Source of the DNA: Petrosia ficiformis
Taxonomy: Eukaryota; Porifera; Demospongiae; Haplosclerida; Petrosiidae
Direction: 5' to 3'
Assembly (NCBI GenBank): GCA_947044365.1
Contig: OX345651.1
Location: 2,433,926 to 2,497,925, forward strand
Length of the DNA stretch: 64,000 bases
This document shows, one piece after another, positions 13,916 to 61,108 of this stretch. The position numbers were made by a program, and so were the translations under genes. Position 1 is the first letter of the stretch, and the number at the start of each line of letters is the position of its first letter. The notes beneath the pieces were generated by a model, which was not told where the DNA came from, ran no database searches, and worked only from the letters and a program-made list of their open reading frames with translations.

Positions 13916-14718
13916 CAGGCTGTGGGCTCTTCCACTTTTGATATTACTCCCATCGATTCCATTCGATTGAGTTCTTGGAGGACTTTCTCATGAAGTGGTA
14001 AAGGTACACGTCTGGGTGCAAACAGCGCATATGGATCTGAGTTGGGTTTTAGTTGGATAGTATAGGGTTCTCCTAGGTTTCCAAGACCTGTAAATACCTT
14101 TGGAAATCTTTCTTTTAGACTTTTATCAGAAACTGCAACATCAATACGACCTATCAGGTTAAGGCCCATAATTGCCGGGAGACCAAGTAGGTTTGATTTA
14201 AGTCCCTCTATAATGTAGACTTGTTCTATTGTAGTGCCCTGATTAGATAGCTTTGTTTTGAATTGTCCAAGTACCTTCAGAGGATTTCGTGATGGTGCGT
14301 ATAATATTTTAGTAGGTGACTGAAGTTTCTGTTTCCCTAGACACTGGTAGACCTGTTTCGACACTGCTGTGACTTCTGCTCCAGTGTCCAATTTAAATTC
14401 TATCTGTTTTCCACTGATTGAAATTTTTGCGTTCCAACAGGATGCTTTCTCTTCATTTACAGTGTTTAGGAATGCTGTATCTAGATGGATTCCTTGGTTG
14501 TCCTCGTTTGTTGATAATTCAGCAACTGTTTTCGAGTAGCACAGAGTACTGTAATGTCCCTTCGGATGACAGCGGTGAGATTCTGCATCTTTGCCTGGGC
14601 AATGGCCTTTGTCATGAATTTTTCCGCATCTTCCACAGTTATTCGTTGATCGGAGTGCTGTTTGTGATCGTGGTTTGTTTCTCCTGAATGTGGGTTTTCG
14701 TTTCTTATCACCCGACAT
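13852..14718 (-). pseudogene. Retrotransposon zinc knuckle, aspartic protease and start of reverse transcriptase
   Basis: In order: a basic N-terminus, a CGRCGKIHDKGHC knuckle-like block, the protease active site FKLDTGAEVTAVS, and the RT-lead block ending PKKNGS. The frame is lost just after PKKNGS (near 13870) by a small insertion; RT resumes in the overlapping frame 13915-13424. Confidence 0.85.
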
Positions 14719-14771
14719 TCGATAGCTTCGTACCTCTTCTAAATCCTTTGATTCAGTGTTGGATCCTTTAT

Positions 14772-15302
14772 TTAGTATTTTATCTGTTCGTGTACAGCTT
14801 CATGTTGGCGAACTAGTTTTATTGCTCGATCTAGGGTTAAGTCAGACTCCAGCTGCATTCTTTCTGAGAGTGATGCGTCACAGATGCCCGCCACTAATCG
14901 ACCACAGATCATTTCTTCTTTGGATTCTTTATATTCGTAGCTTTCTGCAAGAGTGTAGAGCTCCATTATATATGTCTCTGCTGTCTCCCCCTCCAACTGA
15001 TTACGGTGATTGAATCTGGCTCGCTCGAAGATTACATTTTTACGAACCTTGAAGAATCCATTGAATTTTCCGAGGATCTTAGCGTAATCTGTTAGGTCAG
15101 CTTCTGACGGATTAGTTGAAGACAATACAGCCTCAGACTCTTCTCCAAGGCAGTATAACAATGTATTTATTTGTTTCTTTTCCTGGTCATCACTCAATCC
15201 GGAGGCAACGCAATATTATTCAAAATGTCTTTGCCACCGAGGCCAGTCATCTGGGTTTTTGAAATTAAATGGTTGTGGGGGTTGCAGATTGATTCTTTGC
15301 AT
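14772..15302 (-). pseudogene. Retrotransposon gag remnant
   Basis: The frame begins at an ATG at 15302-15300, about 30 bases inside the LTR boundary. An in-frame TAA at 15218-15216 interrupts it after 28 codons, and it then stays open to about 14772. The later part shows the alpha-helical gag/capsid character of Ty3/gypsy elements (FERARFNHRNQ, ETAETYIMEL, CGRLVAGI). Confidence 0.75.
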
Positions 15303-21383: not shown

Positions 21384-22350
21384 GGTTGTAGTCTTTTCCG
21401 TGGGCGGATGCTACTCCAATCAGTTTCTAGTCTTGCCAGCTTCTTGCTGCATACAATCTGGTTCAATTCTGTATCTTTTGGAAGCCTCACCCACCAGGGG
21501 GTATAGTTATTGGGCCTAAATGTTTTGACTGATAGTTTATTTTCAGAAACTTCGGGTGGTGGAGGGGGCGGTAGGCGGGAAACCCTGGCAGGGTAACTGT
21601 AGCTGCTCTCTGAGAAAGATCGGAGTTTGATAGTGTCTAGAAAGGTAGATTTTATGGTTTCAGTGAAAAGCTACAGAATTCAGCTTTCTTCAGCCTCTTG
21701 TAACTATAAAAGTGAAATGAATTTGCACAAAACGGCTCTATTTGTTTCGGGTGGTGGAGGGGGCGGTAGGTGGGAAATCCTGGCAGGGTAACTGTAGCTG
21801 CTCTCTGAGAAAGATCGGAGTTTGATAGTGTCTAGAAAGGTAGAGTTTATGGTTTCAGTGAAAAGCTACAGAATTCAGCTTTCTTCAGCCTCTTGTAACT
21901 ATAAAAGTAAAATGAATTTGCAGAAAACGGCTCTATTTGTTTCGGGTGGTGGAGGGGGCGGTAGGCGGGAAACCCTGGCAGGGTAACTGTAGCTGCTCTC
22001 TGAGAAAGATTGGAGTTTGATAGTGTCTAGAAAGGTAGATTTTATGGTTTCAGTGAAAAGCTACAGAATTCAGCTTTCTTCAGCCTCTTGTAACTATAAA
22101 AGTAAAATGAATTTGCAGAAAACGGCTCTATTTGTTTTCTCAAAATGCATTGCATGCCATGATTGGTGGGCGTGGCTTTCTTGGTTTTGTACTTATTACG
22201 ATGGCAAAAATGGACATTTTTCCAACACTCCCACTCTTGTAGAGAAGTATAAAGATCATGAGAAGATATGAAGGTTGCTATTACACCAGGTTAGAGTCAT
22301 ATTATATAATATTCTATTTTGAAACTGATTGGAGTCGCATCCGCCCATTC
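21384..22350 (+). mobile_element. Family-B MITE copy 2 with a triplicated internal 196-bp unit
   Basis: The left end follows TTAA at 21380-21383 and reads GGTTGTAGTCTTTTCCGTGG. Inside, a 196-bp unit beginning TTCGGGTGGTGGAGGGGGCG occurs three times (starts near 21550, 21746 and 21942). Copies 1 and 3 have one unit. The length of about 967 bp equals the 576 bp of copy 3 plus two extra units. The right end is altered by the adjoining palindrome. Confidence 0.8.
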
Positions 22351-26778: not shown

Positions 26779-29700
26779 GTATGAAATTATGTATTTAATT
26801 TTTTTTAGCAGCTTTCAACACCTAAAGTCATAATCATGAATGCATATAGTAGAATCCTATTACTTCAGAACTATATAATACAACTTTACTTATTATTCAT
26901 TTATATACAGCTTGTGATATTAGTGGAATAGATCTTTACTTTGTAATGGATGAATCTGGTAGTGTTGGTTTAAGCAAATTCCAAATTATGAAAAACTTTG
27001 TCTATAACATTGCAGACAGTTTTGAGATTAATCCTGATGATGTACAAATAGGAGTGATGACCTACTCAAGTTCATACACATTTCACTTCGTTCTAAATAC
27101 ATACATGATTAAATCTCAAATTCTATCAGCAATTCAATCTCTTCCATATAGTGGTGGAAGTACAAACACAGCTGGTGCACTTGATGCTATTCGACTTCAA
27201 GCATTCACAGAATCCAATGGAGCTCGTCCTTCAGCATCTGGAATACCCAGATAGTGATTACTGATGGTCATTCAAATAATTTTGCTGCTACAGTAGCTTC
27301 AGCTAATTTACTGCATGATGCTGGAGTTATAACATTTGCAATTGGAATTGCTGGTGCTAATGAGGCTGAACTAGATGAAATAGCTTCAGAACCAAACAAT
27401 AAAGACTTTGTTAGCAGTTTTGATGCTGAAAGATTAAGAGCTCTGCAAGTTTCAATTAGCCAAAGGGCATGTGAAGGTATTATATGTAATGACTATAATC
27501 ATGCATATAATTATAATTATAATTATAAATATATTATGTACGATACAATTAAGAAGCATCAACAATATATGATAATTACATCTTTATATTTTATAGCATC
27601 ACCAGACTTAACCATTGGCGAGAATATCACAGGTGTACTTCAAGAAAGCGAAACACAATATCTGAATTATCCAATACCAGAGAGTGGTGGTATAACATTA
27701 CAAGTTAATGTAGATCAAGGAACAATTGTCTTATATGCTTCTAGTGTCATCCAGACTCCAAATGAGGCTTTCCATGATATTAAAATAGTAACTAATAGCT
27801 ATGAAGATGTTTTTATTAATCGAAGTAATCTTAGTGACCCTGATGCAGCTACTGTTTTTATTGCTCTTACAAGTGCTGGTGATTCATCAAGTAATACCAC
27901 TACTGTAGTGGTCAATACCCAACCTGGTGATATAGCAACTGGTATGTTCTATGTTGCATATAGCATTTTGTGTTTCAACTGACATGAATATTTATATTAA
28001 GTGTATATGTAGCTGTTTATGATGGTCAGTTACTAAATACTTATTATGTAATAATTATAATGATGCATTTGTAAAATACTACTCAATAATTATCATAATG
28101 ATTAAAGTACAATAATTATTTAACAACTGTGGTCATAGAGTACATACCCCACGCTGAACTTTTATACTGCAGTGATATGAGATTTAGACTGACACCACAC
28201 CTGAGAGCCTGAGTCTAAGCCTGAGCCTTTTGCTTCAGAACCCAAGGTTGATTTCTTGACACAACTCGAGCTTTCTGTTGTTATCATACAATAAAAATAA
28301 GATTATTTACACTTTGTGTATAGCTAGGACTATATAATTATAGTACTGGCACATTTTAGGTAGCTACAAATAGCTATAACAAGTATTGCTACCAACCTTA
28401 TATTGTCTTCGGCATGCAACTTCGCTTCTTGTTGTTGATTTTCCTTCACTTTCAAAAAGGGCTTTTTCAATCTCAGCATTGTGTTTTCACCTTAGCTTTT
28501 ATAATAATTATACTTTATTGCTTTTTGACGTTGCACGTGCGCTTACCGTAGCCTAATTATCCTTGGAATCACAATGGAGCTAGACTACCTAGCTACATTT
28601 TCATACTATTCTGGCAGTTCTCATGATTTCTCAGCTATCTTGATGGTAGTGCAATACCATAAAGAGTGTCAATGAGTGTTATGAAGCAAAGCAAGTATGT
28701 CATTGGTATGCTTGGGAGTGATTTAAATATTTTTGTTACATATTATATATAATTATAATTATATATATATATATATATACCGACACCACAAACAACCGAT
28801 TGGTTTACACGCTTGCACATGCGCACAGGGTAATAATTAGTTGTTTGTTTAGGATACATACATCTTATACCACAGATACTTTGTGCTAATTATAGTTGAA
28901 GCACTATAATTTTAGGGTGCTGTCTACTCGTATTTCATGTCAAAGATTTATGCTAAAGTACATGTAATTGTATCTAGCCATGAAAGGAGTTTATAAACCC
29001 GCAAACACATAATTGAATTTATATCTTTCAATAGTTGGTGCACATATGTCATAGTAACATCATGCATGTAGTCACAACATCCTTTATGACAATTGACAAA
29101 CTAAATTGAAACTCATGCTATACCATGCAACTATACTAACCAATAAAATGGTTATTTAATTTTTGCAGTGTACATAATTACTATGAGATTTGACATTCTT
29201 TATCATGGCATGTACTTTATATACTAGTCAATATAGATAATTGTCAAAAGAAATAAAGTACTGCTTATAAACATTATACCTAGCTAGAAAGGAAATCATT
29301 AATTAATTGATATAGTCTCAGGAGCATGTTATTAACATTTAATATTGTATTGAAACCCATGTAACCAAATGATGGTTAAAATAACCCATTCATGTTTTAC
29401 AGTGATTTGTGTTCATTCATGCAGTGATGATGATGCTGGTAATGGAATACATATAGTTTCTCAGGAATGTTGTTATAACAGACAGGGTAATCTCTTAGTA
29501 GGAGGTCCATATGGAGGATCAGCTAATGCACAACCAGTGCTTGGGAGAATCACTTTGTCTTTGATTTATCTCCATTTATATCATGTTGTGTGATGAATGC
29601 AAGGTATACTGAGTATTATGAGAAACGACCATCTGACAACTGTTCTCATTATGAGCCATTTAATGCAGGTATGTAATCTAGTATTGAAAGTACATGCTCG

Positions 29701-30222: not shown

Positions 30223-33200
30223 GCTAGCTGAGATTCAACCTCTACATTGCACAATTATAGGCCTTGCGCTACGGTGCTCAGCAATTAATGAAGTCTCATT
30301 CAGCACTTGTTATTAGTCATACCTAAAAACTTAACCAAACAAATTAACTTGTTAACCAAGGCAGTTATCTTGGTTTCCATAGAAATTAACAGAATAACTA
30401 ACCTTTAGAAAGAAGAAATTGTTTGATGGAAAAGTATGTATGATTGTACTGAAATTCAACTACCTATGTTCTTCTGTGTTTAGTCAATTCTCATATATTA
30501 TAAGTGAAAGAACAGTCGCTAATAATTATATTCTACATAATTATGATTGTAATTAATATTAATACTAGAGGAATGTTTTATCTTCAGTCAATCCTCAAAA
30601 GGATTCTGATGGCATTAGTGTCTCTGCTTTTGTAAGTACATACAGGGTTCTGTATAGAACTGTATCTCTAGTCTTAAAATACATAATAGCTCCATCAAAT
30701 TTGAAGTTCTAATATTTGTATGTCAAATGTAGGTTGGATGGGTGGTGATCCTCACCTCCTCACACTGGATGGTCACCAGTATACATTCAATGGTAGAGGA
30801 GAATTTATTCTCATTGAGACACGTGATGATAGATTTACATTACAAGGACGTATGATACCAGCTGAAAATGATGATGGTACTGAATCATTGGGAACAGTAT
30901 TCTCAGCTATTGTAGCCAAACAATATGATTCTGATGTGGTAGAATTCAGAGCAAGTGTTTTTGGTGTACTGGTTTTTATTAATAGTCTTGAGATTGAAAT
31001 AGAAGTATCCTTACCAGAAGCATACAACAGTGTTATTGTATCAAATAAAGGAAATGACACATACAGTGCTACATTTTCAACTGGTGTGTACTTGGAGGTC
31101 ATGCAAAGGAATGGATTTTTATCAACCATAGTAGTTAGCCTTCTTCCTACATACTTTGATCTTACACAAGGGCTGATGGGAGTATACAATGATGATCCCA
31201 GTGATGATCTTTTACCACGTAACTCTTCCACACCGCTACCTCTGAATTCCTCATTGGAGAAAGTACACTATGAATTTGGTCTCACATGTAAGACAAAATA
31301 ATAAATGTCATGGTTAGTTTATAATAATTATTATTGATTTTCCTTTTGTGCCTCGCAGGGATTCTTAGTGATTCATCTCAGAGTCTATTCTCATATGATG
31401 ATAGTTCAAGTGATTTCTCCTCATTTTATGATCCAACATTTACTCCAGCTTTTAGTCCACAATTTAATAATTCTGAACTTGAGGAACAAGCAAACCTATT
31501 GTGTCAGGGTGATTTTGAGTGCTTATTTGATATAGCTGCAACTGGACGTGTTGAAATAGGCAATGCTACTCTTGAACAACAAGCAATTATTGAGAACATA
31601 AATGAGATTACCAAACCAAGTCAGTTTTAATATTATATTGTTGTAGCCATTGTAATAATGCTATTAATCCAAATACAGTTGTATGCAATCCATCTTGCAT
31701 CAATGGTGTGTGTGTAGCTAATGATACCTGCAGTTGTTTCTTTAGATATAAAGGAGATCTCTGTAATAATGAAGGTAAGTAATTTTGTATAATTATATTT
31801 ACAGTTGCATATGAATATTCCCTTTGAAATTTACTGTTTTAATGAGGTATGCAAAAGAGATACAGACATACTTGGAACATCTACTCATTGATTTTTAAAC
31901 CACACACAAAAAGGCCTACAAAATCAGTTGAATTTCATTTATTGTAAATGTTGACAGTACAACCAGTAAATGCGTACATAGCTCCAGGGGCAGATACAGG
32001 ATTTATTGTATGGTGGGGTTGATCTCAGCGCGCATCGTGCGCCGTGCAAAATTTTAGCTAATTAATTATTCATAAAAACAAAAGAAAAAGGTCCTCTAAC
32101 ACCGATTTCTGGAAGATGTGCCTCGGATGTTGTTAAATGAAAGCCTTCAAAATGTCTTCTACTGGAATTCTCTCCTGGTAATGCATAGCTATCACAGCCA
32201 TGTCTGAAAAGTGTTCTTCTGTGAGTGAGGATTGTGTGTAAGTCTTTCAAACTTCGGGGGGAGGGGGTTGCAACCCCACAAACTCCACCCCCCACCGCCT
32301 CTAAATCTGCCCTTGAGCTCCTTTTGTAACTTCTAAATCTCTTTCTTGAGGCTTCTTGTTCTCTTTATCACACTCTTCGTTTAGTTTAATCTTCGGCTTT
32401 TTCAACTGTAGCATATCTATAGTGGCTTTTAGTTATTTATCTGAAATGTTTTTATAGGATCTCACACCATCAACACTTCTGTGACTAGTTACAGACAGGA
32501 TACCTTTTTCCATCTCGCTTCCTAACTTCTGTAATGAACAATGGGAGCCAGTAACTTAACTGTTGATTTGTGGCATCACTACTACTTTCAGTAACCCACT
32601 CTTGCCAAGTTTTTACAGCCCGTTTTGTATTAGCACCCGTGTTCTCTGGAACACTCTCTTCTACCTTACTCAACAATTCATCACTCGAAAGAGGTGAAGC
32701 AAAACGCAATATTACCGGGCTCTGAGATTGCTGACAGTCCTGTGAGGCTTGCAGAGACTGTTTATAGTCCTGTGAAGCTTGCCACAGGAGATCGTCGATC
32801 TCTTCCTTACCGTTCATGACTGGACTGACCTTGATCTCTGAGACTTGATCACGTGACATTCAACCAATCACCAACTGTAAACTAGTTGTTAGTGGTGGTT
32901 ACGATATTGTGGTGATTTGCATACCTCGGGTTTCGCCCTTGGTATGTAAATCAACACAATACCTTGCCACCAATAACCTATATATATTTTATGGAGTGCC
33001 GTTTGCGTCAAAATTATTAGCGTCTCCCGACTCAAACAACATGAATGATAACCCTAACGATCCCAAGGCCTAAACTATATCCAATGTCTGATATGATATT
33101 GGATGTCGGATATAGTATATCGGATGTCGGATATAGTATATCGGACGTCTGATATGATATTGGATGTCGATATAGTATATCAGAAGGGGTAATAATGGAG

Positions 33201-45522: not shown

Positions 45523-48500
45523 TCAGTCAATCAGGCCAGCATCCGTCAACAATCTTTCACAAGCCATACACAAGTTTTCAGAATGGAACGGTTCATCTAT
45601 CAGTTCATTAAAAACTTCAATTGTTCCTGTACGTAGTTCACGGGATGCAAGTACAATTTTTTCCATTTTGTTTTGAGTAAGAAACTAAAAATACAAAATA
45701 CAACAAAAAGTTCAATCACAACAGTATAGTGTTTCTGATTGTTTTAAAAGCAGCAAAAAGGAAGATTTAACCCTATTGAAACAATATTCTAATGCTTGGC
45801 AAATTAAATTATGTGACACAAAAAGAAACTGGAATACAATTAATATCATTATGATTATAGCAAACATTGTTAGCCATCAACATACAGTCATACATGACTC
45901 AACCAAAATGTATTGTTGATAACTATTTTTAGTAATAATTATTCATCAATTACTGACCGACATGCAGTAGTAGTGACGCTCAATTCCATCAGCAGGTATA
46001 TCTACACGATCAACATAGTTATCAGCTTCAGTTGTAGTAGAAGAGAAACCTTTTTCACGTATGATCTACATTTATAATAACAGTAATGATTGTAAGTAGT
46101 AAAATAATAATTTAAAGTAGTTACATAGTATGATACTATTATAAATTCACGATACTGTAAGTTGTTTTGGCTTTGGCCGAAGCTCAATATTGCTAAATTG
46201 AAAAACTAGTGAGAATGTGCAAATTTCAGTATTGAACATGTTTCCATTAATTAACATATTTTAGAAATAACACTATGGTAATATGAATATGTATAAATAT
46301 ATAAAATTGTGAATAAAGGGGTGTTCGAATGAACAAGTACAGAAATCCCACCACAAGTGTGATTGGGAAACATGAATATTTATTGAGAAAATAATTGCAG
46401 ACAATACTTGATAGTAGTAATAATAATTATTATTATAGATTATATTTTGTGTGTGTGTGTTACATCTTACTGTAGAGTCCAAGTCCTACCAAGAGGCAAG
46501 AGTACAGTTTAAAAAGAAACATAGAGTGTAAAAATCGAGTTGTTAAAACTATTTCGTGGCAATGAAATCAAATAGGTGGAGCTAGAAAGCAGTGGTGTGT
46601 CATATCAGTAATTTTCATTTTGACACGATACCGAGTAGTTTGGGAATCAGTATCAATGGTATTGAGTACGATACCAATACTTGATAATGCTCATGTGCAA
46701 TTGTGCATAATACATGTCTTAAATAAACGTCAAATTTTGTACAAATTCAGTTAAAAATGTGGAAGCGCTTTGTAAATGTTTCTGTTAAATGGGTGTGTCT
46801 GATTAAAATAGAAGTGTGGTGATTAGTATCAGTATCGGTATTGATAATTGGACATTACTCAATACCAGAAATTTCAGACGTGGATATCAAAGTATCGAGT
46901 ACTTTGGTATTGAATTATCCGTGATGGTCATGGCAGAAAGCTTAGAGCCACCTCAATGTTGTAGCAGCCACTACTTCAATTGTACTTGATTTCAAGCTTT
47001 GATTCGACAGCAATAGAAGTGGAGCATGTACTATTTTGATCCTTGTATAATTTCAAGTCTTTTGGTAGCTCAATTGAAGTCCCAATGTTGTTAATTGTCC
47101 AGAAATTTTGTTCACACACACACACACACACACAGAACACTAGATTACAGTAGCCTGCTCTGCCTACACGGGTGAGGGTTTAATTGAATTCTTAATGGTA
47201 TCCCACAAGATTAGCTTGTTGTACAATAAAATTGAAAAATATGAGGCTTTTCTTTAAAAAAATTTAGAAAATTACCCAGCATAGCAATAAGCTATAAGTT
47301 CTATAATACAAGAACTACTATGTAATGCTTGTTGTATATGTACAGATGTACATGTATCACACACACTCTACATGTATATTTACCACATTTGCTACTTCGT
47401 TAGGAATGACTCCCCTAACCTCTTTGATTATACCATAACAATCAGGACCTTCAGTTGTGTCAGGTTCAGTTACAACAGGTTCAGTAACTTCAGTTACTTC
47501 TTCATCAATCATAATGCGTCTTAAAAATTGAAAACTAAAAAACAACAGCTTTTATATCGAATTGTTACCTACCCATTCTCTTGTTCTGTTCCCAAGTCTG
47601 GTTCATTCATCATAGGTCTGTGATTACTCTCTTCTTCAGATTCACTTGGAAACTCTGGCCTGAAATAATATTATTATACATATATACAAGAATCCTTAAA
47701 TATATTACCATTCTTGTTGCCTTCCAAATTCTGGCTCATTCATCATAGGATTGTTCCACTGGTTAACAACAGCTTTGTCATTAAACTGTTGATTACTCTC
47801 TTCTTCAGATTCACTTGGAAACTCTGGCCTGAAATAATATTATTATACATAGGTATTATTATATACAAGCATTCTTAAATATATTACCATTCTTGTTGCC
47901 TTCCAAATTCTGGCTCATTCATCATAGGCCTAATTGATAGAAATGTCAAAAATAACTTAGCTGACTAACAAATGGAAATCTACCTTTCACGATGTTCATT
48001 CATCATAGGATTGTTCCACTGGTTAGCAGCAGCTTTGTTGTCCCATTCATTAAACTGTTGATTACTCTCTTCTTCAGATTCACTTGGAAACTCTGGCCTG
48101 AAATAATATTATCATACATAGGTATTATTATATACAAGAATCCTTAAATATATTACCATTGTTGTTGCCTTCCAAATTCTGGCTCATTCATCATAGGCCT
48201 AATTGTTGTTAGAAATGTAAACAATAACTACATGTATACAGTTATAATTACAATGATTATTACATTTTTAATAATAAGCATTCTCATTAGTATTATGTGA
48301 AAAAAGTATAAATGACCTTTCATTCACAGGATCATTCCCCTGGTGAGCAACACTGTCTTGCATTTTACTTTGTTCATCCATGTTTTCCGGTGAATTCTCT
48401 TCCTTTTGCACCCAATCAAACTGTTGCTTGACTGCTTGGAAGTGACGATTTAGATTTTCTAGTTCCTGATCAGTTGCCTCCTTTTCTTCTTGATTCACAA

Positions 48501-51500
48501 ACATTTCTCGGCTAACAATTAAAAAAAAAACAATGAATGACCTTTTGTAATGACATTGTGTTTACTTTTTGGTCTCCTTCAGTTCTTCTTCAACTTCTGG
48601 TTCATTCATCATAGGTCTAATTATAATAAATATGCAAGAAATGAAACAAATGATAAATATACCTCTCATTCATGTTCCACTGGTTAACAGCATTGATATC
48701 ACTATTCTCCCATTTGTTAAACATTGGCCTCCTATCTTCTTGAGATTGAATTGGGAACTCTGGCCTGAAATAATATTATCATACATAAATGTGTTATTAT
48801 ATACAAGAATGCTTATAAAACTAAAATAATACCATTGTTGTTGCCTTCCAAATTCTGGTTCATTCATCATAGGATTGTTCCACTGGTTAACAACAGCTTT
48901 GTCATTAAACTGTTGATTACTCTCTTCTTCAGATTCACTTGGAAACTCTGGCCTGAAATAATATTATTATACATAGGTATTATTATATACAAGCATTCTT
49001 AAATATATTACCATTCTTGTTGCCTTCCAAATTCTGGCTCATTCATCATAGGCCTAATTGATAGAAATGTCAAAAATAACTTAGCTGACTATAACAAATG
49101 GAAATCTACCTTTCACGATGTTCATTCATCATAGGATTGTTCCACTGGTTAACAACAGCTTTGTCATTAAACTGTTGATTACTCTCTTCTTCAGATTCAC
49201 TTGGAAACTCTGGCCTGAAATAATATTATCATACATAAGTATTATTATATACAAGAATCCTTAAATATATTACCATTCTTGTTGCCTTCCAAATTCTGGC
49301 TCATTCATCATAGGCCTAATTGATAGAAATGAAAACAATAACTTAGCTGACTATAACAAATGGAAATCTACCTTTCATGATGTTCATTCATCATAGGATT
49401 GTTCCACTGGTTAACAACAGCTTTGTTGTCCCATTCATTAAACTGTTGATTACTCTCTTCTTCAGATTCACTTGGAAACTCTGGCCTGAAATAATATTAT
49501 CATACATAGGTATTATTATATACAAGCATTCTTAAATATATTACCATTCTTGTTGCCTTCCAAATTCTGGCTCATTCATCATAGGGCTAATTGATAGAAA
49601 TGTCAAAAATAACTTAGCTGACTATAACAAATGGAAATCTTACCTTTCACGATGTTCATTCATCATAGGATTGTTCCACTGGTTAGCAGCAGCTTTGTTG
49701 TCCCATTCATTAAACTGTTGATTACTCTCTTGAGTCTCTTCTTTTGATTCACTTGGAAACTCTGGCCTGAAATAATATTAAATAAGTATTATTATATACA
49801 AGCATGCTTAAATATATTACCATTGTTGTTGCCTTCCAAATTCTGGCTCATTCATCATAGGATTGTTCCACTGGTTAGCAGCAGCTTTGTTGTCCCATTC
49901 ATTAAACTGTTGATTACTCTCTTGAGTCTCTTCTTTTGATTCACTTGGAAACTCTGGCCTGAAATAATATTAAATAAGTATTATTATATACAAGAATGCT
50001 TAAATATATTACCATTGTTGTTGCCTTCCAAATTCTGGTTCATTCATCATAGGATTGTTCCACTGGTTAACAACAGCTTTGTCATTAAACTGTTGATTAC
50101 TCTCTTCTTCAGATTCACTTGGAAACTCTGGCCTGAAATAATATTATTATACATAGGTATTATTATATACAAGCATTCTTAAATATATTACCATTCTTGT
50201 TGCCTTCCAAATTCTGGCTCATTCATCATAGGCCTAATCGTTGTTAGAAATGTAAACAATAACTACATGTATACAGTTATAATTACAATGATGATTATTA
50301 CATTTTTAATAATAATAAGCATTCTTATATATGCATTAAATTTTATGTATTATAATAATGATACATGTAATTCTAATAATTATACATGAAAAAAGTATAA
50401 ATGACTTTTCTAGTTCCTGATCAGTTGCCTCCTTTTCTTCTTGATTCACAAACAATTGGCTAACAATTTAAAAAAAACGATGAATGACCTTTAATAACAC
50501 TGTGTTTACTTTTTGATCTCTTCATTTTGTTCATTTGTGGATTGTGTTTTGAGTTGTTCCTTCAGTTCTTCTTCTACATCCCCCAAACGGTTTCTCAAGT
50601 CTTCAAAATCTTTAATAAGAACTTCATCACTATCATCATTTTCAGTTGAGTGCCATTGATTCTTTACTAAGATACAGGAATTAAAAAATAGTTATAATTA
50701 TCTACTATAATACAGGAGTAGTATTGTTTTAGCATGATAATAATGATCTCTTTTAGTTAGTAACTAAAATAATATAAGGCTAAATAAAATGTTAATTTTT
50801 TAGTTACAACAACACATGTAGTTAATAACTAAAATAATATATATATAAGGCTTAATAAAATGTTCATTTTTTAGTTTAGGTAATTAACAAGTGTATATAG
50901 AGAAAAAAAACATCCCTATGATTGCTTTACAAATTTAAGTGAAGATAAAAGTATCCCTATGCTGCTTTGTAGTGTCCAGCACTATGATTCAGTAATCATG
51001 GCTGACTTGATCAAGTATTATAGTTATTATTTTGATTATCTACTCTCCTGACCTTTGAAAGGACCTTGTAGAACTTTAGGAATATATTTCAGGCAGAATA
51101 GCTAGCTATTAGTTCCAGTTTTTACGTAAGCCAGGCAGTTTTCTTTCTGCTGGTCTGTAGAGCTCGTCGCTCGAGCGCGCGTTCTTTTACGCGCCACACC
51201 CATTAATTGACCGAGCCCCAGGGAATGACGCAACTTCCTTAACTACGTATACAACGCAATACTCGCGCAAGTGGACACAAGAAAAAATATACATTAAACC
51301 CCGTGGAAAGCAACATAGGGATGGCCCTACGGGCCATAAAAATCATAAATTCCTTTTTTAAAACAAAGTTGGTCAAAGTAACATAAAATAGAAATTGCTG
51401 CAATATGAGTCTAGCAATATCTGCAATTAATAAACAAGTAAGCTGTCAGACTACAGAAAAAACAAGTGTATATGGAGAAAAAAAGTATCCCTATGATTGC

Positions 51501-54500
51501 TTTATGGTGTCCAGCATTCGGTAATCATGGCTGACTTTATCATGCCTGAAACACAACAGCCTATTATAGTTATTATTTTGATTATCTACACTCTTTACCT
51601 TTTAAAGAATCTTGTAGAACTTTAGGAATGTATTTCAGGTAGAATAGCTAGCTAGCAGTTCCAGTTTCTAATTCTATGTAAGCTACAACTTACAAGCCTA
51701 GTTTAGCCTACAGGCAGCTTTCTTTCTGCTGAGTTCGAGTGCGCGTTCTATTACGCGCCACGCCCATTAATTGACCGAGCCCCCGGGAATGACGCAACTT
51801 CCTTAACTACGTATACAACCGTTTACAACGCATACTCGCGCAAGTGGACACAAGAAAATATATTATAATGATAATTATAATAATATATATATAGTTCCAA
51901 CCCGTGGGAAAGCAATCATAGGGATGGCCGTACGGGCCATAAAAACGGTTGTTTCTTCATATAAGAAGTCACGAAATTATGCTACATTTATATAGTTTCA
52001 TATGGTATAAGAATTATGTTAGGAGTACTGACATTGTTAGGGTTATATCAGGATGTTTTTGTTCTTACTCAAGCATGAAATTATTGTATTTTGTGGTTTG
52101 TATAAGTATTATACTATTTTGAATGTGTAATATAGCTACTATACTATCCTTATATGAAGAGATGACCAAAAAAACAAAGGCTACAACAAAGACGAATGAG
52201 GTACATGTACATTTACATGGAAAGAAGAACATCCAGAAAAAATGCTAAAGAAACACCAGAAGATAGAAAAGTGAGGTTGCATGAAAGAAGGTTTAGTCAG
52301 AGATAAAACGTCATCTGCAAAGGTTTGCCCCCACGATGGAGTTACATTTGACTAGTTAGTATTATTGTCATATTTCACTATAATTTCTTAAGTGGAACTA
52401 CACATATAATTTTATGTACATTAATATAACCAAAATACAAAGCATTGTGGGGTGAGTCTGTACATGTACATGTACATGTATGTTACAATGAAGATGACTG
52501 AGCGGGAGTAGAACTATACACTGTAAAAATGAATTTGTTATTTTGACAGACCAGTTGTTACCTCAGTTGCATGTACATTTATAATACATAGTTAGAAACA
52601 TCAAATGCGAGGATATATAATTAACATTTTGTCTGGTTATAATAATTATAGCTATATATATAATAAAAAGGACTACAGTTATGATTGTACATTCTACATG
52701 TGGCAGTAGGGTGTATATTGCATTCATGATTGCATGAAAATTGTTTTTACTATAACCAATAATTTGAAACAAATTGTTTTATATTATCTCATTTTAAAGA
52801 CATCAATAACAGCCTCCTTATATAGTAGTAAGGTACATGTATGTACATTCCTGATTGCATGATTAGTTTTTACTATAACCAATAATTTGAAACTAATCGT
52901 TTTATATTATCTTATTTTGAAGATATCAATAACAGCCTCTTTACATGGTAGTAAGGTGTATATTGGTATACGCATTTATTGGGCTCGCCGCACCTATGCG
53001 TGGGCGAGTCTTTAGCACTTTGGTTGTCATTCTGTCATTCATTCTGTCTGTCTGTCTGTCCCCACTTTTTTAATTTAATCGTCGATTTAAAGAGTTCATA
53101 GAGTAGAGAAAGAAGTTTATCAAAATCATATTGAAAAGAGATTTGTAACAGACATTGTTTTAGCAAGTTACAGACTCATACATTCTATCTCTGTAAGCTC
53201 TCCAGTTTCTGCCATTTACTTGCAATAACCCACACCCTCAGCCACACCCTATGTGATCACGTGAGATCAAACGTGGAGGTCAGTTTAGAGCAATACCTTC
53301 CTTTCTGCTATTATTGAACTTTTGTTTGACTTTCAAATTACATATATTTGAACTCTAAGTTCAATGTTTTTGCTCATTGTAGTTGTAAAAATGTACAATT
53401 CATTATAGGATAATTATCTTTAGTAACTGAGTGTTGTGGCATAGATATTTTGGTAATGAATGAGGTAATGAATATTTGTTGGAAGAGTATATTATGTAAT
53501 TTGACTGTAAGTAATATAGTTATTATACTAGTGCAAAGCAGTATAGCTGATGGAGAATCATTCTTAGTCATCTTCCATGTGTTTTTATATTTATCAGAAA
53601 TAATCTTAGCCAGTCTAGCCACAAAAAAACTTTCTCAACCAACTTTCAACTTTATATAAACAACAAATTCAAATTTAAGCTTGTTACTTTCTCTCTTGCA
53701 TCTCATTTATTTAATTGTTGCAATTGCAACCTATCCTTAAGCTACAGCAGCGAGGCCACGCACCATATATAGTCATAACATTCCTTTTCACTATATAGCT
53801 ATATTAAAACCAGACTAAATGCTAACTATCCTCTTATTTCATGTTTCTAACTATATATTGGAAATGTAAGTGCAACTGAGGTAACAACTGGTCTGTTAAA
53901 ATAACAAATTCATTTTTACAGTGTAGTTCCTACTACAATGAAAGAAAAACAAAAACTAGAAGACTAACAGGAGTTGAGCTAGGACCTTCAGCTGCACACG
54001 AACAAACAAATAACATTCATTCACACAAAGGGTGGCAACATAAGTAGATTGTGTGTACACAGATACAATTTTGTTTAGTTGTATAGTGTGTAGCAAGTAC
54101 TGTAGTGTAGTAATGGTGTGTGTACTGTGTGTGAGTGTGTTATGAAAATTTAAAATTGATTGGCAGGGGACTTGACCATCCTTACAGAGAACAGAGTAGA
54201 AATCCCTTGTGCAACATAAAGATTTTAATGTTTCCCAACCATCCCCAACATATATTTATTTAGTTGATATTATGTAAGAATGCACATTCTCACTACAGGA
54301 ATAAGTTTATTTGTATTTCTAAATACTATATCTGGTCATCAGGGAAACTCCACAATCTGGTCATTACAGAACCAGAAGTTTTAGTCCCTTTAATCTTCCA
54401 ACTTATTGCTTGCTACGAAAAGGGAGGAACCACTCCACATTTGGAATCTGGCAGTGTGAAGCTTTTATTTATTTCTATTACTACAGGCATGAATAATCAT

Positions 54501-57500
54501 ATAAGCACATGTACGTACTTCTTTGTTTTATGCTTATAGATATGGCTGGCTGGTGTCCTTTGTAGCAGCAGATTTGCAATTTGCCATTGAGACCTTGGGC
54601 TTTTCTTTGTTTATCAGCAGTGTTAACTTTGTGCCATGTGCTTTAAAGGTCAGTATGTGTACAGACTAATTACAATATAAATCACTTTTCAAGTGTTTAC
54701 TTAAGCTTGTGCAAACTAGCAAAGGTGTGAATTAAATCATAGTTAAAGGATTATTATACCATGGTGCGTGGGCGATCGCCATGGTAACCTTTGATGTACT
54801 GCGGGGAGATATATGCCCATAACATGTAGACAGGGAGATTTAGTGTCTAGCTACTAAATTGTATTTTCACAGTTTTTACAGTAAAACACTAATTGGGATT
54901 GTACTATGGTTTCTACTTGACAACAGTGATATCAAATGTGCATACATTTGTGTTACCATGGTATAAAATACATATAGACCTGTTTGGAGGCAGTTATGGG
55001 CATATAACACCCTTGAGATAATTGTCTCGGGCTATGCCCTCGACCAATTATCTCATGGGTGTTATATGCCCATAACTGCAGGGTATATCCTATACTTAAC
55101 AGTACAGTGTTTGTGAATAAGTAGAATCGGACAAAAATATAATTCTAGTTATTATTGTTGTGGCCCACACCACAATGGTTATAGTATTGTTATAATTATT
55201 TAACCTAATAGTTTTACTTTTAGTTATGGTTAACAATTATAATACTATTATGTATGTGCAACAGGTAGAAAAATGGTCTGAATACATTAAGCTGAATAAT
55301 TTATGCAGTACCAGTTCAATTTCTAATTCAATTTAATGTGTGGGCAGGAGCACTTTCAGCATATTTGTATGTACATATACATGTACATATATGTGTGTAA
55401 CATGAGAAAGATATGATAACCCATTTCTTGGTAGCTAGTAAAATATTTACAGACATAACATCTCATATGCACTGACATGTCTTGATGATTGTATTAGACA
55501 GAATAAGTGTTATCAATGCTTTGCTAATCTCGCCTCACATTGAAACTAAATGCTAAATTCTATAAATTAATGAGGAAAGTGAAAAACATTATTAATAATT
55601 AGAAAAGAGTCATCAGGTTGATCGGTTGGTTGTTGGATTAGATACCATGGTTATTACCTTACTATTTCATAGTGTTAAATTTATTATCCAGGCAAGCCAC
55701 CACAATGCCTTACCTTCATCTACTATCTCTACAGTCTGTACATGAAGGAGGAAACCTCAAATATGAAAATATAATTCCTGTAATTTGTCTCTATCACAAT
55801 GTAGATTGAGCTGAAATCAGGAATGGGGTCCAAGCACTCGGGCTTACGTTTCAAGCATAGTATAATGAATCCATCGAAATGCTTATAGACACGTGAAAGG
55901 ACATAAACCTTTGTATCAGTACTGATGCTTACAGCACTGTCACTTTCTGAGCAGTTTTAAGCCATTCATCAGTCTAAAGCTAACCAAGTGTAATCAATTG
56001 AATTTTGGAAAGAAAAGGCAGCCAGTTTTTCAACATTACCACAACTGTCCACCTATCAGCTGAACATTTTGAACACTTGATGCACTATAAATATAAAATG
56101 GTTATTATAACAGACCAGTAGTTACCTGTTGCATACTTACAGGCTCTTAATTGTAGATAATATTAAAAATCATTTCAACTATATACATGTAGGAAAATGA
56201 AATACAAGGATAATAAATAACATTTTTATCTGGTTCTGTATAACTACTATAATTATTATAGTAAAAAAGGAATATTGACTGCAGCCATGAATACAATGTA
56301 CACTATATGAGGCTGTTATTGATACTTTCAAAATGAGATTATATACAATTTGTTTCCCATTATTGGCTATAGTAAAAACATAATTATTTTATGGCCCGCA
56401 GGGCCATCCCTATGATTGCTTTCCCACGGGTTCGATGTATGTTTATATATATATATTATATTTTCTTGTGTCCACTTACGCGAGTATGCGTTGTATACGT
56501 AGTTAAGGAAGTTACATCATTCCCGGGGGCTCGGTCAATTAATGGGCGTGGCGCGTAAAAGAACGCGCGATCAAGCTCTACAGACCAGCAGAAAGAAAGC
56601 TGTGTAGTTTACGTAGAAACTGGAACTAATAGCTAGCTATTCTACCTGAAATATATTCTACAAGTTCTACAAGGTTCTTTAAAAGGTAAACAGAGTAGAT
56701 AATCAAAATAATAACTATAATAGGCTGATGTGTTTCAGGCATCATAAAGTTAGCCATGATTACTGAATGATGGACACCACAAAGCAGTCATAGGGATACT
56801 TTTTTCTCTATATACCTTGTACATCATACTATCACATGAGGAGATGTGTAATTATGTTGTTCTGAAAATAACCAATTGCTTATAGCAACTGAGGTAACCA
56901 CTGTGTAGTTAAAATAATCAATTCAGTTTTACATATTCATTTTCAATTTATTCTAGTCAGTTATTTTCATCCTCATTACAGCCATTGCTTAAGTTATATA
57001 TACTTGAGTTAAACTTGGGCATAGCACATGTGCTTGTGCTTTTAACTTAAGCTACTTTTCAATTCTCAGTACTTGTGCTTACAATGTACTGTTTCAACTT
57101 ATTGTTTGAATCCTTTTAATGTGCTTTGCCCCATTCCTGGCTAAAATTAATGTGCATTACAAAATACATCACTGAAATGTCTTATGTACATGTATATGTG
57201 TATACAGTAATCATAATAATTATTATGGCTTCAGATTAATATGTAAACTGTTTATCTTTATTCTTGTAATTATCGCACACAGACAGAACACCAATGTTAC
57301 ATGTTATTCTCTTTATAATAATTCCCATAGAATTGACTAATAATACACGTGTTATAATAATTATGATGAGTATACATTGTGAGAATCATAATGATTAAAG
57401 TATACACTTCTCGATAATTGTTAAGAAACTGCTATAGTAAATATACATAGTACATTAATATTACAATAACAACAGTGAACAGTTCCACAGAAAATATGTG

Positions 57501-60500
57501 TAGGATTGTCATAACTGTCAGAAAAGTTACATTTATGACATAACACAAGGATCTGAAACTTTTGTGCGCAATCTATACTATACATATAATTATTCTTAAT
57601 TCAGTTTCTCTGATCGGGAAATATAGCAGCTACATGTAAATGTATATAGTCAGCCACCTTATTTTCAGTAACACCATATTTTCCAGTATAATAAGAACAA
57701 TTATAGTCTACAAACATAGTCGATTCGAACTATTTTATCTGTATTATACATAATTATACATATTACATAATTATTTGCCAGCAGGGAATCTGTAGGTACC
57801 AGCCGTTCTAGCTGAAATACATTCTAAATGTTATGCAAAAAGTAAGAAGAGTACAAGTAAATCACTATAACAGGCTATTGGGTGATTGCATGAGAAAGTT
57901 GGTAAATGATTTTAATGCACAACAAATTAATCATAGGGATATTTTTTTCTCCATATATCATATACCTAATTATACATAATTACACATAGTTATATATACA
58001 TGTACTATATACATGTATATGTTATGTAATTAATTATAATTTATGTAATATTATATAATAATAATAATACAGCTATAAATAATTACATAGTATGTAATTT
58101 ACATGTATTTTTGCAGTTAAGCCTATCTAGATCATTCATATAATTTATGACAATTATATTATAATTAGCAATATCTATCTAATTCAAGACATACAACATA
58201 TTTATAAACAGTTAGCAGATTTATATACTCAGGTATAGCATTTTCATATGTGATATACAGTGAAATTATGTCACTAAAAAGTCTCCACATAGTAATACTA
58301 ATTACCTTAGTTCTGTTGTTAGTATATATAGTATAGTAATTACTGTCTCATTACTATATATGGTGTTGAATTGACAACAGCAATTACTGTCAAAACTACT
58401 GTAGTATGAAAATGAAACAGCCAAGTAATTACTGTACTGTATATATGGTGACTTTTAATGACATATATACTGTATTTTGGTATATAATAATTGTCAGGGT
58501 CTGATAATCTATTATAATACAAAATATGTACATATATCTGGAAAAAATTGTAGTAATAATCAGCTAAATTAGTGAAATTAGACTCCTACAGAGCAAGTAT
58601 CAAAAGTTAAAATGAGCAAACAGATATAGTGTCATTGTGTTCTTTTAAGTTCTTTTCATGTAATTAACTGCCACATCAAACAAAACTATTGCTAGCTTTT
58701 AAACACTTTGTTATTCATTTATACCTATCTAAACTGGACAAACAAAATAACAACAAAAGGCTTTTTTTTCTCAAGGTACCAAATTAAGCTATATCTGGAT
58801 GAGCAATTCCATCACCATTGCTTATCAATATATTCATAGCATGTATTGTGATGTGAAAACTGATATTCATTAGACTAATTGTTTTGTTCCAGAGAACATT
58901 GTAGCATTATTTCCGACTTTGTTGCATGTAAAAAGTCTATACTAGTTGACAAAATCATTGTACAACAATTGGAACACTTCCAAAAATAAACAGTAATATT
59001 GCTTTGAGCTAATTAAATTAGTATATACATGTAGCTGTAAATATTTCCTGTATTCCTGGAATGAGCAGTTGTAAAAGGTATTTTACAAATCCAATGTACA
59101 TGTAACTGAAGAAATCTGTTTACTATAGATCTTTCCTTCATTCTCAGGCTAATATATAAGTTCCCAACATGTTGGCATAGTATACTGTAACTGTTGCTTT
59201 TTCAGTCCTCATCTTAGAGATTCTTTTAATATTTATACTAGTACAATACATACTGCAAATATTTATAGTCAAAAGTATCTGGCTGATATTAGTCTTCAGT
59301 GGCCTGTTTCTGTAGTTACATACATGTACATGTACATCCATTATCAACATACATATGTGAAAATAGGCAATGCTTAATACACCAATCTACTTCTAAATAT
59401 TTACAGTCTGTACTCTGTATTAGTATAAATATTAAAATAATATGTTCATAGCTAGCCAGATACTTTTGCATTGACAGTCAAGTGTCATAACATATCAACC
59501 ATCAGTATGTGCTGCCAAAGTTTGACTAATAAATTTCACATGATTATACATTTAGCAATATAATAATTAATAATACATAAGAGCAGTAATGTACTACCAT
59601 ATAGTACTATAATTACAAGTATGTACACCACTTCATAGGGACAGAAATAAGAGGCTAATGCCCTCCTCCTGTCTTCATAACTAAAGTCTACTTTATATCT
59701 CTCATATTGCATCATAATCAATCTTAGATGAGCTAAAATTCCAAATGTTCATAATGAAGAATGCATCTACACCCACTAACATTGTGTGTTTTCACCAACA
59801 AGTATTTCGCTAAATGTCTTGTGAGAGAATGAAATCCTAGCAGAAAGTGGTGTGACTATTCTACACATTCACAAAACTCACCAGATAGTTGCAAATATGA
59901 GAAATTTTAGGATCCTGGTTGGATATGTATCACTTAGTCAAGAACTAGTTTTCATTGAATACAATGATTCGGACAATTTTAAAACCTATTCTTGGTTATA
60001 TTCCTATTCATTACTTATTAATAATATTCAGTGCATACACATACCACATGAGTAAAGTATTTATAACCCCAACTTCAATTTTGTTCCTACACTTACATGT
60101 ATGCAATAGTGTATACTGTATAGTATAACAGCATCAAGGGGGATAGGAGGCTAAAGTCATAAAAGAGGGCTTAGACCTCCCAACCTTCACTTCTAAAATA
60201 TACTCAGATTATCACTCTCACAAAAGATAAAATCCAAAGTTTCGTGGCAAAGGAGCCCAAAATGTCTTGTCAGATTTTGTAAGAAACCGCAGCTAAGAAA
60301 GTGGTACATGTATGACTATATAACACTACAAACGTCTGATAGTTGCATTGAAAGAAATTTTCAGCCCCACATAATTATATATAGTATGATGGTATCATCA
60401 TCCCTTTGATGTGGTGAGTTCTATATATTGTATAATAGATCTTTCATGTGCACACTATGCAGGAGATGTCACCATTATACATATATTGTATATAGTATGC

Positions 60501-61108
60501 TAATAGGTTCTATATACTGCATATAGGACGATCATTGTGTGTCCTCGGATGTGATATAACCCTCGCAGGCTCGGTCCATATCACATCCTCAGACACAAAC
60601 TCAGGTCCTATATTTTGTATATACGACCTATTACCATACTATATATATTACATACACTTTAAGCTAAGGACTTAATTTTAAGATTCAGAAACCTATTATT
60701 GGATGAATTTCTATTTTTAATTGCATATAATACTATAAATAAGAGTATTTACACTTGCATATGTGGTTAGCCCCAAAACTATAATTTCATGCATACCTTA
60801 TGGTATAACATAATGAAACCATTCTGACTATAATTATACTACAACAAACACTACAATTGGTTTCACTGATTTTAAAGGTTAAGCTAACCTTCCCTCTCAG
60901 GTGAGATCATGGGGTTTTCGAATTCTTCATCAAAGTTAACTATTTGGTAGGTGGAAATAACGTGGCATAAAAATACAATTTACTTCATAAAAAAAAAACA
61001 ACAACTATATATATATGTGTGAACAACATAATAAATAATTTTTATACCTGGCAGCCCAAGGATACCAGCAAAATTTGCGATAACCAGAACTAGTATCACT
61101 CCCTTCAT
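45523..61108 (-). CDS. Secreted acidic tandem-repeat protein, 25 exons, 794 aa (unrecognised family)
   Basis: Exons from 5': 61108-61048, 60939-60889, 50666-50510, 50459-50406, 50233-50192, 50132-50013, 49958-49821, 49766-49644, 49586-49545, 49485-49372, 49315-49274, 49214-49110, 49053-49012, 48952-48833, 48764-48663, 48616-48566, 48511-48317, 48198-48157, 48097-47984, 47929-47888, 47828-47709, 47659-47573, 47534-47384, 46065-45958, 45684-45523. All junctions are GT-AG, phases agree throughout and the sum is 2385 nt. The protein has a signal peptide (MKGVILVLVIANFAG), then FDEEFENPMISPERE, then an acidic, Gln/Asn-rich repeat region built on PEFPSESEEESNQQFN and PMMNEPEFGRQQEW. The C-terminus is unique, about 157 aa with five cysteines. 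Probably extracellular and largely disordered before the C-terminal domain. Linking the first two exons to the array across a 10.2-kb intron rests on phase and on motif likeness (FENPMISPERE versus NNPMMNEHRER). Confidence 0.75.
46593..46927. mobile_element. Degenerate short hAT relative in an intron of the repeat-protein gene
   Basis: Subterminal phrases GATACCGAGTA, GTATTGAGTACGATACC and AGTATCGAGTACTTTGG match the ends of the hAT at 18661-20794, and the outer end reads CCGTGATGG. The middle has no transposase. Confidence 0.45.
47573..50233 (-). repeat. Tandem array of mini-exons and their introns
   Basis: A mixed array of 42-nt exons (PMMNEPEFGRQQEW) and 102-138-nt exons (PEFPSESEEESNQQFN...NQWNNPMMNE...) separated by introns of about 55-75 bp. 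The PEFGRQQ.W motif occurs ten times and the PSESEEES-type motif about ten. Introns repeat with the exons (AATAATATTATTTCAG acceptors), so whole exon-intron units were duplicated. A larger unit is also duplicated: FVNQEEKEATDQELE occurs in the exons at 50459-50406 and 48511-48317, and EEELKE occurs in those at 50666-50510 and 48616-48566. Confidence 0.92.
50895..51342 (+). mobile_element. Family-A MITE copy 4
   Basis: The unit runs from CATCCCTATGATTGCTTT to CCCTACGGGCCATAAAAA, with an extra partial repeat of its left end (GTATCCCTATGCTGCTTT near 50951). It lies in the 10.2-kb intron of the secreted repeat-protein gene, 130 bp from copy 5 in the same orientation. Confidence 0.8.
51475..51946 (+). 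mobile_element. Family-A MITE copy 5
   Basis: Nearly full unit from AGTATCCCTATGATTGCTTT to GGGATGGCCGTACGGGCCAT. It keeps the internal words ACTACGTATACAAC and ACTCGCGCAAGTGGACACAAG. Confidence 0.8.
52508..53937. mobile_element. Family-D element with long (about 90-bp) inverted ends
   Basis: The left end (ACTGTAAAAATGAATTTGTT... ACCAGTTGTTACCTCAGTTG) is repeated inverted at 53830-53932. Inside, a block of about 140 bp is duplicated in tandem (about 52693-52830 and 52832-52975; shared phrase ACTATAACCAATAATTTGAAAC). A family-E-like head with a CTGT run lies at 52980-53060. Fragments of the same ends occur at 56090-56390 and 56884-56945, around family-A copy 6. There is no transposase. Confidence 0.6.
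54990..55079. repeat. Hairpin with 35-base arms
   Basis: Arms 54990-55024 (GCAGTTATGGGCATATAACA...) and 55045-55079 are inverted copies with one or two changes around a loop TCTCGGGCTATGCCCTCGAC. Other CTCGGGC/GCCCTCG-centred hairpins lie at 32894-32982, 33329-33484 and 35907-35959. Confidence 0.8.
56387..56812 (-). mobile_element. Family-A MITE copy 6, inserted in a family-D fragment
   Basis: Reverse orientation, from TTTTATGGCCCGCAGGGCCA to CATAGGGATACTTTTTTCTC. Family-D fragments flank it on both sides (56090-56386 and 56884-56945), so it inserted into an older family-D copy. Confidence 0.75.
57000..60370. other. AT-rich intronic stretch
   Basis: Part of the 10.2-kb intron of the minus-strand repeat-protein gene, with many TACATGTA and TATATA runs. 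A diverged family-A piece lies at 57780-57955. I see no exon; short ORFs here are hydrophobic or low-complexity translations of AT-rich DNA. Confidence 0.5.
60375..60652. repeat. Family-C half palindrome
   Basis: It matches the right arm of the nested palindrome at 33618-33895, including ATAGTATG..GGT..CATCATCCCTTTGATGTGGTGAG, CACTATGCAGGAGATGTCACC and the terminal hairpin around GATATAACCCTCGCAGG. A left arm is not present. Confidence 0.75.

What the first reader, a model, noticed from the sequence alone, without database searches (positions are those of the whole stretch)
45523..61108. Undescribed-looking secreted protein built from tandemly multiplied mini-exons
Twenty-five exons join in phase into 794 codons with a signal peptide, an acidic repeat region and a unique cysteine-containing C-terminus. 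Most coding exons are near-identical copies of two mini-exon types, each duplicated together with its short intron. I recognise no family. Exon-unit multiplication with intron likeness implies recent unequal exchange, so copy number should vary between individuals. A role as a structural, matrix or mucus protein, or as a rapidly evolving self/non-self molecule, is inference.
Basis: partly seen in the sequence, partly recalled or inferred. Interest (0 to 1): 0.88.

Follow-up and report, generated by a model that had tools for sequence, protein, structure and literature searches.

The report
Sponge protein from multiplied mini-exons
In the stone sponge Petrosia ficiformis, one gene carries a long array of small exons copied together with their introns, all open in the same reading frame, and it is predicted to encode a secreted, acidic, largely unstructured protein that matches no known family and is likely a matrix component whose length could vary between animals.

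Summary
The genome is Petrosia ficiformis odPetFici3.1, chromosome 16. All 19 array exons (4-22) are multiples of three with phase-2 junctions; the stated frame is open in 19 of 19, the other two offsets in 0 of 19. Two exon types dominate (6 of A, 8 of B). Introns are about as alike (94-97%) as exons (96-98%), so copying is recent or homogenising. A 14-bp motif shared by A and B explains the copying and four B+A fusion exons that lost their intron.

No Pfam match and no second copy were found. One database relative exists: a 91-residue ENA protein, 79% identical over 78 residues, free of intron sequence at both C-terminal junctions, but out of our frame from about the exon 24/25 joint.

Function is inferred. 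I favour a secreted, disordered, acidic repeat polymer with a cysteine-bearing end domain, in mesohyl or spicule matrix; a multi-copy peptide precursor is the main rival. Array transcripts and variation between individuals could not be tested. This is an orphan protein of a known architectural kind.

The parts
61048..61108 (-). exon 1: start codon and predicted signal peptide, 61 nt
   Evidence: hydrophobic stretch read by eye
60889..60939 (-). exon 2, 51 nt, phase 1 in and out
   Evidence: the link to exon 3 across 10,222 bp rests on phase only
50510..50666 (-). exon 3, 157 nt, acidic; phase 1 in, phase 2 out
50406..50459 (-). exon 4, 54 nt, shortened copy of the exon 17 type
   Evidence: weak match of exon 17 to this place, E 0.09
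50192..50233 (-). exon 5, type A, 42 nt
50013..50132 (-). exon 6, type B fused to A, 120 nt
49821..49958 (-). exon 7, type B fused to A, 138 nt
49644..49766 (-). exon 8, type B, 123 nt
49545..49586 (-). exon 9, type A, 42 nt (first base C, giving Ser instead of Arg at the junction)
49372..49485 (-). exon 10, type B, 114 nt
49274..49315 (-). exon 11, type A, 42 nt
49110..49214 (-). exon 12, type B, 105 nt
49012..49053 (-). exon 13, type A, 42 nt
48833..48952 (-). exon 14, type B fused to A, 120 nt
48663..48764 (-). exon 15, diverged B copy, 102 nt
48566..48616 (-). exon 16, 51 nt, chimera of A start and exon 3 end
   Evidence: comparison by eye
48317..48511 (-). exon 17, 195 nt, full-length form of the exon 4 type
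48157..48198 (-). exon 18, type A, 42 nt
47984..48097 (-). exon 19, type B, 114 nt
47888..47929 (-). exon 20, type A, 42 nt
47709..47828 (-). exon 21, type B fused to A, 120 nt
47573..47659 (-). exon 22, 87 nt, truncated B joined to an A-like end
47384..47519 (-). exon 23, 136 nt, Thr/Glu/Pro linker and start of the C-terminal domain (first Cys)
   Evidence: partly conserved in P0001
45958..46065 (-). exon 24, 108 nt, second Cys
   Evidence: partly conserved in P0001
45523..45684 (-). exon 25, 162 nt, CxxC and stop
   Evidence: P0001 matches this exon's DNA in another frame
47573..50666 (-). array region holding 16 copies of the 14-bp motif CCTATGATGAATGA, the likely seed of exchange and exon fusion
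   Evidence: 16 copies here and 16 in the whole window, both strands

Best explanation
This is a single-copy sponge gene whose tandem array of in-frame mini-exons is predicted to make a secreted, acidic, disordered repeat polymer, likely an extracellular-matrix or spicule-matrix protein held in place by a small cysteine-bearing C-terminal domain. Shown by sequence: the in-phase exon array, near-identical introns, fusion exons at a shared 14-bp motif, the composition, and that no known domain or second genomic copy was found. Inferred: unequal exchange between copies of the motif sets the number of modules. Because every array exon is phase 2 to phase 2 and a multiple of three, adding, losing, fusing or skipping modules would keep the frame, so chain length can change without damage. 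The repeats (Glu/Asn/Gln-rich, regularly spaced Trp, SxE sites that could be phosphorylated) would act as many weak binding sites for cations, mineral or other matrix chains. The four C-terminal cysteines would fold or cross-link the chain end.
For: Gene model and frame control. Repeat and intron identity; tandem families. Fusion exons: 4 of 8 B exons continue directly into A sequence at the 14-bp motif, the other 4 keep the intron. Chain after residue 19: pI 4.2, about 92 kDa. Array residues 109-656 carry 123 Asp/Glu against 41 Lys/Arg and fall on the disordered side of a charge-hydropathy line, as do the N-terminal part and the linker; the C-terminal 109 residues fall on the folded side. 26 Trp, 15 SxE sites, no N-glycosylation sequon, all 4 Cys in the C-terminal part. 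Single copy: repeat DNA, C-terminus, array, exon 17 and N-terminus find only this gene in the 191-Mb genome, apart from two weak stray hits, E 1.2 and 1.5. C-terminal splicing and constraint: P0001 shows no intron sequence at either junction; up to the frame departure 58 of 68 positions match and all 10 mismatches fall in a 24-residue patch (random placement as tight: 33 of 200,000).
Against: No transcript was available for the array or for exons 1-3. No expression, localisation or mineral-binding evidence. From about the exon 24/25 joint P0001 follows another frame of exon 25 (15 of its last 16 residues equal that frame's translation) and ends soon after, so it does not support our exon 25 frame or the CxxC end; it could be a processed copy, a truncated form or a sequence error. 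Exons differ among themselves about as much as introns do, so the array alone shows little sign of selection on its protein beyond frame. The structure model of P0001 is poor (mean pLDDT 53). The genome search is exon by exon with a loose first look, so distant paralogues could be missed. No similarity to any known sponge matrix protein was found.
Confidence: 0.5

Rival explanations
1. A precursor of many short peptides: the repeats are cut at Arg (GR, RER) or by another protease to release repeated signalling, defence or cyclic peptides, as in cnidarian neuropeptide or sponge proline-rich macrocyclic peptide precursors.
For: Signal-peptide-like start plus many near-identical acidic-spaced units; PEFGRQQ occurs 10 times and PMMNE 16 times, and Gly-Arg can be an amidation site (recalled). 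Sponge hosts are reported to excise proline-rich macrocyclic peptides from ribosomal precursors (passages of PMC11382151), and two sponge phoenixin precursors carry an amidation site (passages of PMC9004410).
Against: Only one basic pair in 789 residues, in the diverged exon 15. The RER sites are followed by Pro, which blocks convertases, and EFGR lacks the usual upstream basic residue for monobasic cleavage (both rules recalled). A Cys-bearing C-terminal domain is not needed for this.
Confidence: 0.18
2. A fast-evolving defence or self/non-self molecule whose module number and splice forms differ between individuals.
For: Frame-safe symmetric exons and a recombining array; a tight variable patch in the C-terminal domain between this gene and P0001 (10 of 10 mismatches in 24 of 68 residues).
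Against: One copy found, modules nearly uniform rather than diverse, no known recognition domain, no polymorphism data.
Confidence: 0.12
3. A young orphan gene under little constraint: the array expands by neutral exchange and its length has no function.
For: Exon and intron divergence among copies are similar; of 30 B-core codons 5 vary, 3 nonsynonymous and 2 synonymous; P0001 is frame-shifted against this gene.
Against: Frame kept in 19 of 19 exons; exon length changes are in threes while intron lengths are not; conserved blocks in the C-terminal domain.
Confidence: 0.15

Closest known systems
Schistosome micro-exon genes (MEG), including early-described tandemly repeated exons (Davis et al., seen as a reference title)
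   Same: Signal peptide followed by many short exons mostly in multiples of three, secreted products described as intrinsically disordered, alternative splicing (passages of PMC10526429).
   Different: MEG exons are 6-81 bp with introns of about 100-5000 bp; here 8 of 19 array exons are at most 81 bp and 18 of 20 array introns are under 100 bp. No direct sequence comparison was made; different phylum.
Glassin and other sponge silica-associated proteins (hexaxilin, perisilin, silicatein)
   Same: Glassin is a secreted sponge tandem-repeat protein of the silica matrix (passages of PMC10772126).
   Different: Glassin is His/Asp, Pro and His/Thr rich and hexactinellid; this protein is Glu/Asn/Gln/Trp rich and poor in His (1.4%), and comes from a demosponge.
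Sponge proline-rich macrocyclic peptide precursors
   Same: Host-encoded, ribosomal (passages of PMC11382151); signal peptide and repeated units (recalled; the primary paper is not held).
   Different: No short proline-rich core of varying sequence stands out by eye; array modules are 14 and 35-46 residues and acidic.
Casein-like secreted calcium-binding phosphoproteins of vertebrates (recalled)
   Same: Secreted, unstructured, Glu/Gln/Pro-rich, SxE sites, symmetric small exons that duplicate (recalled).
   Different: Those use phase-0 exons (recalled); here phase 2; no Pfam match links them.
Silacidins of diatoms
   Same: Highly acidic, likely unstructured peptides that promote silica precipitation (passages of PMC3820600).
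   Different: Mainly phosphorylated Ser, Asp and Glu, low molecular weight, diatom origin; here Glu/Asn/Gln/Trp repeats in a long chain.

Membership tests
Schistosome-type micro-exon gene | most coding exons in multiples of three | tested here: met
   19 of 19 array exons
Schistosome-type micro-exon gene | exons of 6-81 bp, introns of about 100-5000 bp | tested here: not met
   8 of 19 array exons at most 81 bp; 2 of 20 array introns at least 100 bp (definition from passages)
Schistosome-type micro-exon gene | signal peptide at the N-terminus | tested here: inconclusive
   hydrophobic N-terminus in exon 1 by eye; no predictor; exon 2-3 link rests on phase
Known protein domain family (Pfam) | match above curated cut-off | tested here: not met
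   0 families for the full 789 aa at E<=0.1 and for the C-terminal 109 aa at E<=5
Multi-copy neuropeptide precursor | dibasic cleavage sites flanking repeated peptides (recalled definition) | tested here: not met
   one basic pair in 789 aa, at residue 415 in the diverged exon 15
Multi-copy neuropeptide precursor | released peptides detected | not testable with these tools
   needs peptidomics
Sponge proline-rich macrocyclic peptide precursor | short proline-rich cores between recognition sequences, cyclic products (recalled) | not testable with these tools
   primary paper not held; no product data
Glassin / silica-associated protein | His-rich and Asp-rich repeat domains | tested here: not met
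   His 1.4%, Asp 4.3% of the whole protein (domain make-up of glassin)
Glassin / silica-associated protein | present in spicule silica | not testable with these tools
   needs spicule proteomics

The most novel reading that the evidence does not exclude
A sponge gene built as a length dial: a 14-bp motif repeated in two mini-exon types lets modules be added, lost or fused with the frame always kept, so each animal makes its own chain length of a secreted acidic polymer that ends in a domain with a hypervariable face, an individual-specific matrix molecule in an animal without adaptive immunity.
Probability: 0.13. Interest if true: 0.75.

Novelty: new member of a known kind. Interest (0 to 1): 0.42.

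Why it matters
It is a clear case of a protein lengthening by copying whole exon-plus-intron units in an early-branching animal, with intermediate forms (fusion exons, chimeric exons, a doubled third exon type) still readable. If the array varies between individuals, Petrosia would offer a simple system to measure exon-array mutation and to link chain length to matrix or skeletal properties.

Tried and rejected
Non-coding tandem repeat: rejected by the frame control and by exon lengths in threes against free intron lengths. The other tandem arrays with period over 100 bp in the window and 20 kb of flank (21551-22137; 52721-52957; L024 3139-4448) were seen in tables, the last also as letters, and not analysed.

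Gene-family expansion: no support; only this locus matches, apart from two stray hits at E 1.2 and 1.5.

Other homologues: composite 297-aa query, 767 candidates, none at E<=1; residues 665-789 in full-length context, 177 candidates, none at E<=1; the C-terminal 119 aa found one of six candidates, P0001. Exon 25 in viral contigs (34 pattern matches) and genome contigs (125): none confirmed as a relative. PDB: only Mitofusin-1 at E 1.4, taken as chance. Literature: five short peptide strings from the protein, 0 papers; exon-duplication/casein search, 3 papers, seen as a listing and not followed; spicule-proteome search, 17 papers, of which I opened passages of one. Rfam: 0 matches in the window at gathering score.

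Structure: AlphaFold on P0001 alone gave mean pLDDT 53 and was not used.

Chondrosin (secreted sponge protein, pI 5.11) was looked at because the paper names Petrosia ficiformis; that mention is a reference title, and no sequence relation was tested (passages).
Full report
WHERE IT IS. The window lies at G000:C16:2433926-2497925 of a 191,215,263-bp genome in 29 contigs. Contig C1 is 63,279,122 bp and C16 5,393,497 bp. The Petrosia ficiformis genome paper gives a longest scaffold of 63,279,122 bp and chromosome 16 as 5.39 Mb (section 7 of PMC12648040). So this is the stone sponge Petrosia ficiformis, odPetFici3.1, chromosome 16. That paper counts 35 scaffolds and 191,273,811 bp, so a few small scaffolds are not in the copy searched here.

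THE GENE MODEL. All 24 introns begin GT and end AG, as the model required. Exons 1-2 carry the start codon and a hydrophobic N-terminus that looks like a signal peptide. A 10,222-bp intron separates them from exon 3, and only phase agreement supports that join. No stop-to-stop frame of 100 or more codons lies wholly inside that intron, but that does not prove the join.

WHY THE ARRAY IS CODING. Exons 4-22 are all multiples of three (19 of 19); array introns are in 5 of 20. The junctions of introns 3-22 are all phase 2. At the claimed offset 19 of 19 exons are open; at the two other offsets 0 of 19 are. Length differences among B-exon copies are in threes, while intron lengths differ by 1, 2, 5, 9 and 10. 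Copies are not independent, so these counts overstate the evidence, but the contrast is clear. In 16 of the 20 array introns, read-through meets a stop right after the split codon. That is a general property of phase-2 introns starting GTAA or GTAG and not special to this gene.

HOW IT GREW. Type A (42 nt, PMMNEPEFGRQQE or Q) occurs six times, type B eight times. Mean pairwise identity is 98.4% for A exons, 95.6% for B exons, and 94.2% and 97.3% for the two intron classes. Introns therefore are nearly as alike as exons, which means recent copying or homogenisation. A third exon type occurs as exon 17 and, shortened, as exon 4 (weak match, E 0.09), and by eye the intron after exon 16 resembles that after exon 3, so a larger block was probably also doubled. 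The 14-bp motif CCTATGATGAATGA is present near the end of B and the start of A, 16 times in the array and nowhere else in the window. In exons 6, 7, 14 and 21, B runs straight into A at this motif; in exons 8, 10, 12 and 19 an intron sits between. Diverged copies (exons 15|16 and 17|18) keep the split form, so I infer that split is older and that fusion arose by deletion between motif copies. The fused exons carry GAA (6, 14) or GAG (7, 21) at the joint, which suggests more than one fusion event or a later change (inference).

THE PROTEIN. The chain after residue 19 has pI 4.2 and about 92 kDa. The array (residues 109-656) has 123 acidic and 41 basic residues and is predicted disordered by a simple charge-hydropathy rule; the last 109 residues are predicted folded. 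There are 26 Trp, 15 SxE motifs and no N-glycosylation sequons, and the only four cysteines are at 682, 734, 775 and 778. No Pfam family matches.

RELATIVES. In the own genome the repeat DNA, the C-terminus, the array, exon 17 and the N-terminus find only this locus, apart from two stray hits at E 1.2 and 1.5. In the large protein database two searches found nothing at E<=1 and one found P0001, 91 aa from a 543-base ENA record, E 1.9e-31, 79% identity over 78 residues. It has no intron sequence at junctions 23|24 and 24|25, so it comes from spliced RNA or a processed copy. Up to the frame departure, blocks before and after a 24-residue patch are identical; all 10 mismatches, one of them a gap, lie in the patch (58 of 68 positions match; random placement as tight in 33 of 200,000 trials). 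From about the 24|25 joint P0001 follows another frame: 15 of its last 16 residues equal a different frame of our exon 25. It then ends, so it does not support our last 50 or so residues, the CxxC included. Whether that is a sequence error, a truncated form or a decayed copy cannot be told.

WHAT IT PROBABLY DOES. A secreted, acidic, disordered repeat chain with a small cysteine-bearing end most resembles matrix polymers. A sponge precedent for a secreted tandem-repeat matrix protein exists: glassin (passages of PMC10772126). The composition differs from glassin and from silacidins (passages of PMC3820600), so I claim likeness in manner of working only. The peptide-precursor rival keeps some weight, because sponge hosts are reported to make peptides from ribosomal precursors (passages of PMC11382151). 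But there is one basic pair in the whole protein, and Pro follows the RER sites (cleavage rules recalled). The defence or self/non-self idea rests only on recombination potential and the variable patch.

COMPARISON AND NOVELTY. Secreted proteins built from many frame-neutral short exons are known in schistosomes (passages of PMC10526429), and tandemly repeated exons were described there earlier (reference title in the same passages; six papers in the library hold the phrase, seen as a listing). This gene differs in exon and intron size, and P0001 is the only relative I found. I file it as a new member of a known kind, with an orphan protein.

LIMITS. I had no transcript, no second individual, no other sponge genome and no predictor of signal peptides. 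The primary paper on sponge macrocyclic peptide precursors is not held; what I say of its repeats is recalled.

Noticed in passing
969-1724 +: Guanylate-binding protein N-terminal GTPase domain (PF02263, E 2.2e-29) near the window's start.
   Followed up: partly
26853-27254 + and 30705-31301 +: VWA domain (PF00092, E 1.9e-27) and VWD domain (PF00094, E 8.7e-16), perhaps of one large secreted protein.
   Followed up: partly
19002-19415 -: hAT transposase C-terminal dimerisation region (PF05699, E 2.7e-15).
   Followed up: no
13424-15215 -: Open frames that look like a retroelement gag-pol by eye; not searched.
   Followed up: no
21551-22137: Tandem array, period 195, 3 copies, 97% matches; not analysed.
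   Followed up: no
L024 3139-4448: Tandem array of period about 340, 3.9 copies, within 10 kb beyond the window's left end.
   Followed up: no
51016-51124 / 51562-51670 and 51171-51255 / 51735-51819: Repeated elements (90% and 95% alike) inside the 10.2-kb intron 2, perhaps mobile element remains.
   Followed up: no
exons 23-24, 47519-47384 and 46065-45958 -, against P0001: Tight cluster of amino-acid changes around the exon 23/24 junction between identical flanks; could be a variable surface or an artefact of the record.
   Followed up: partly
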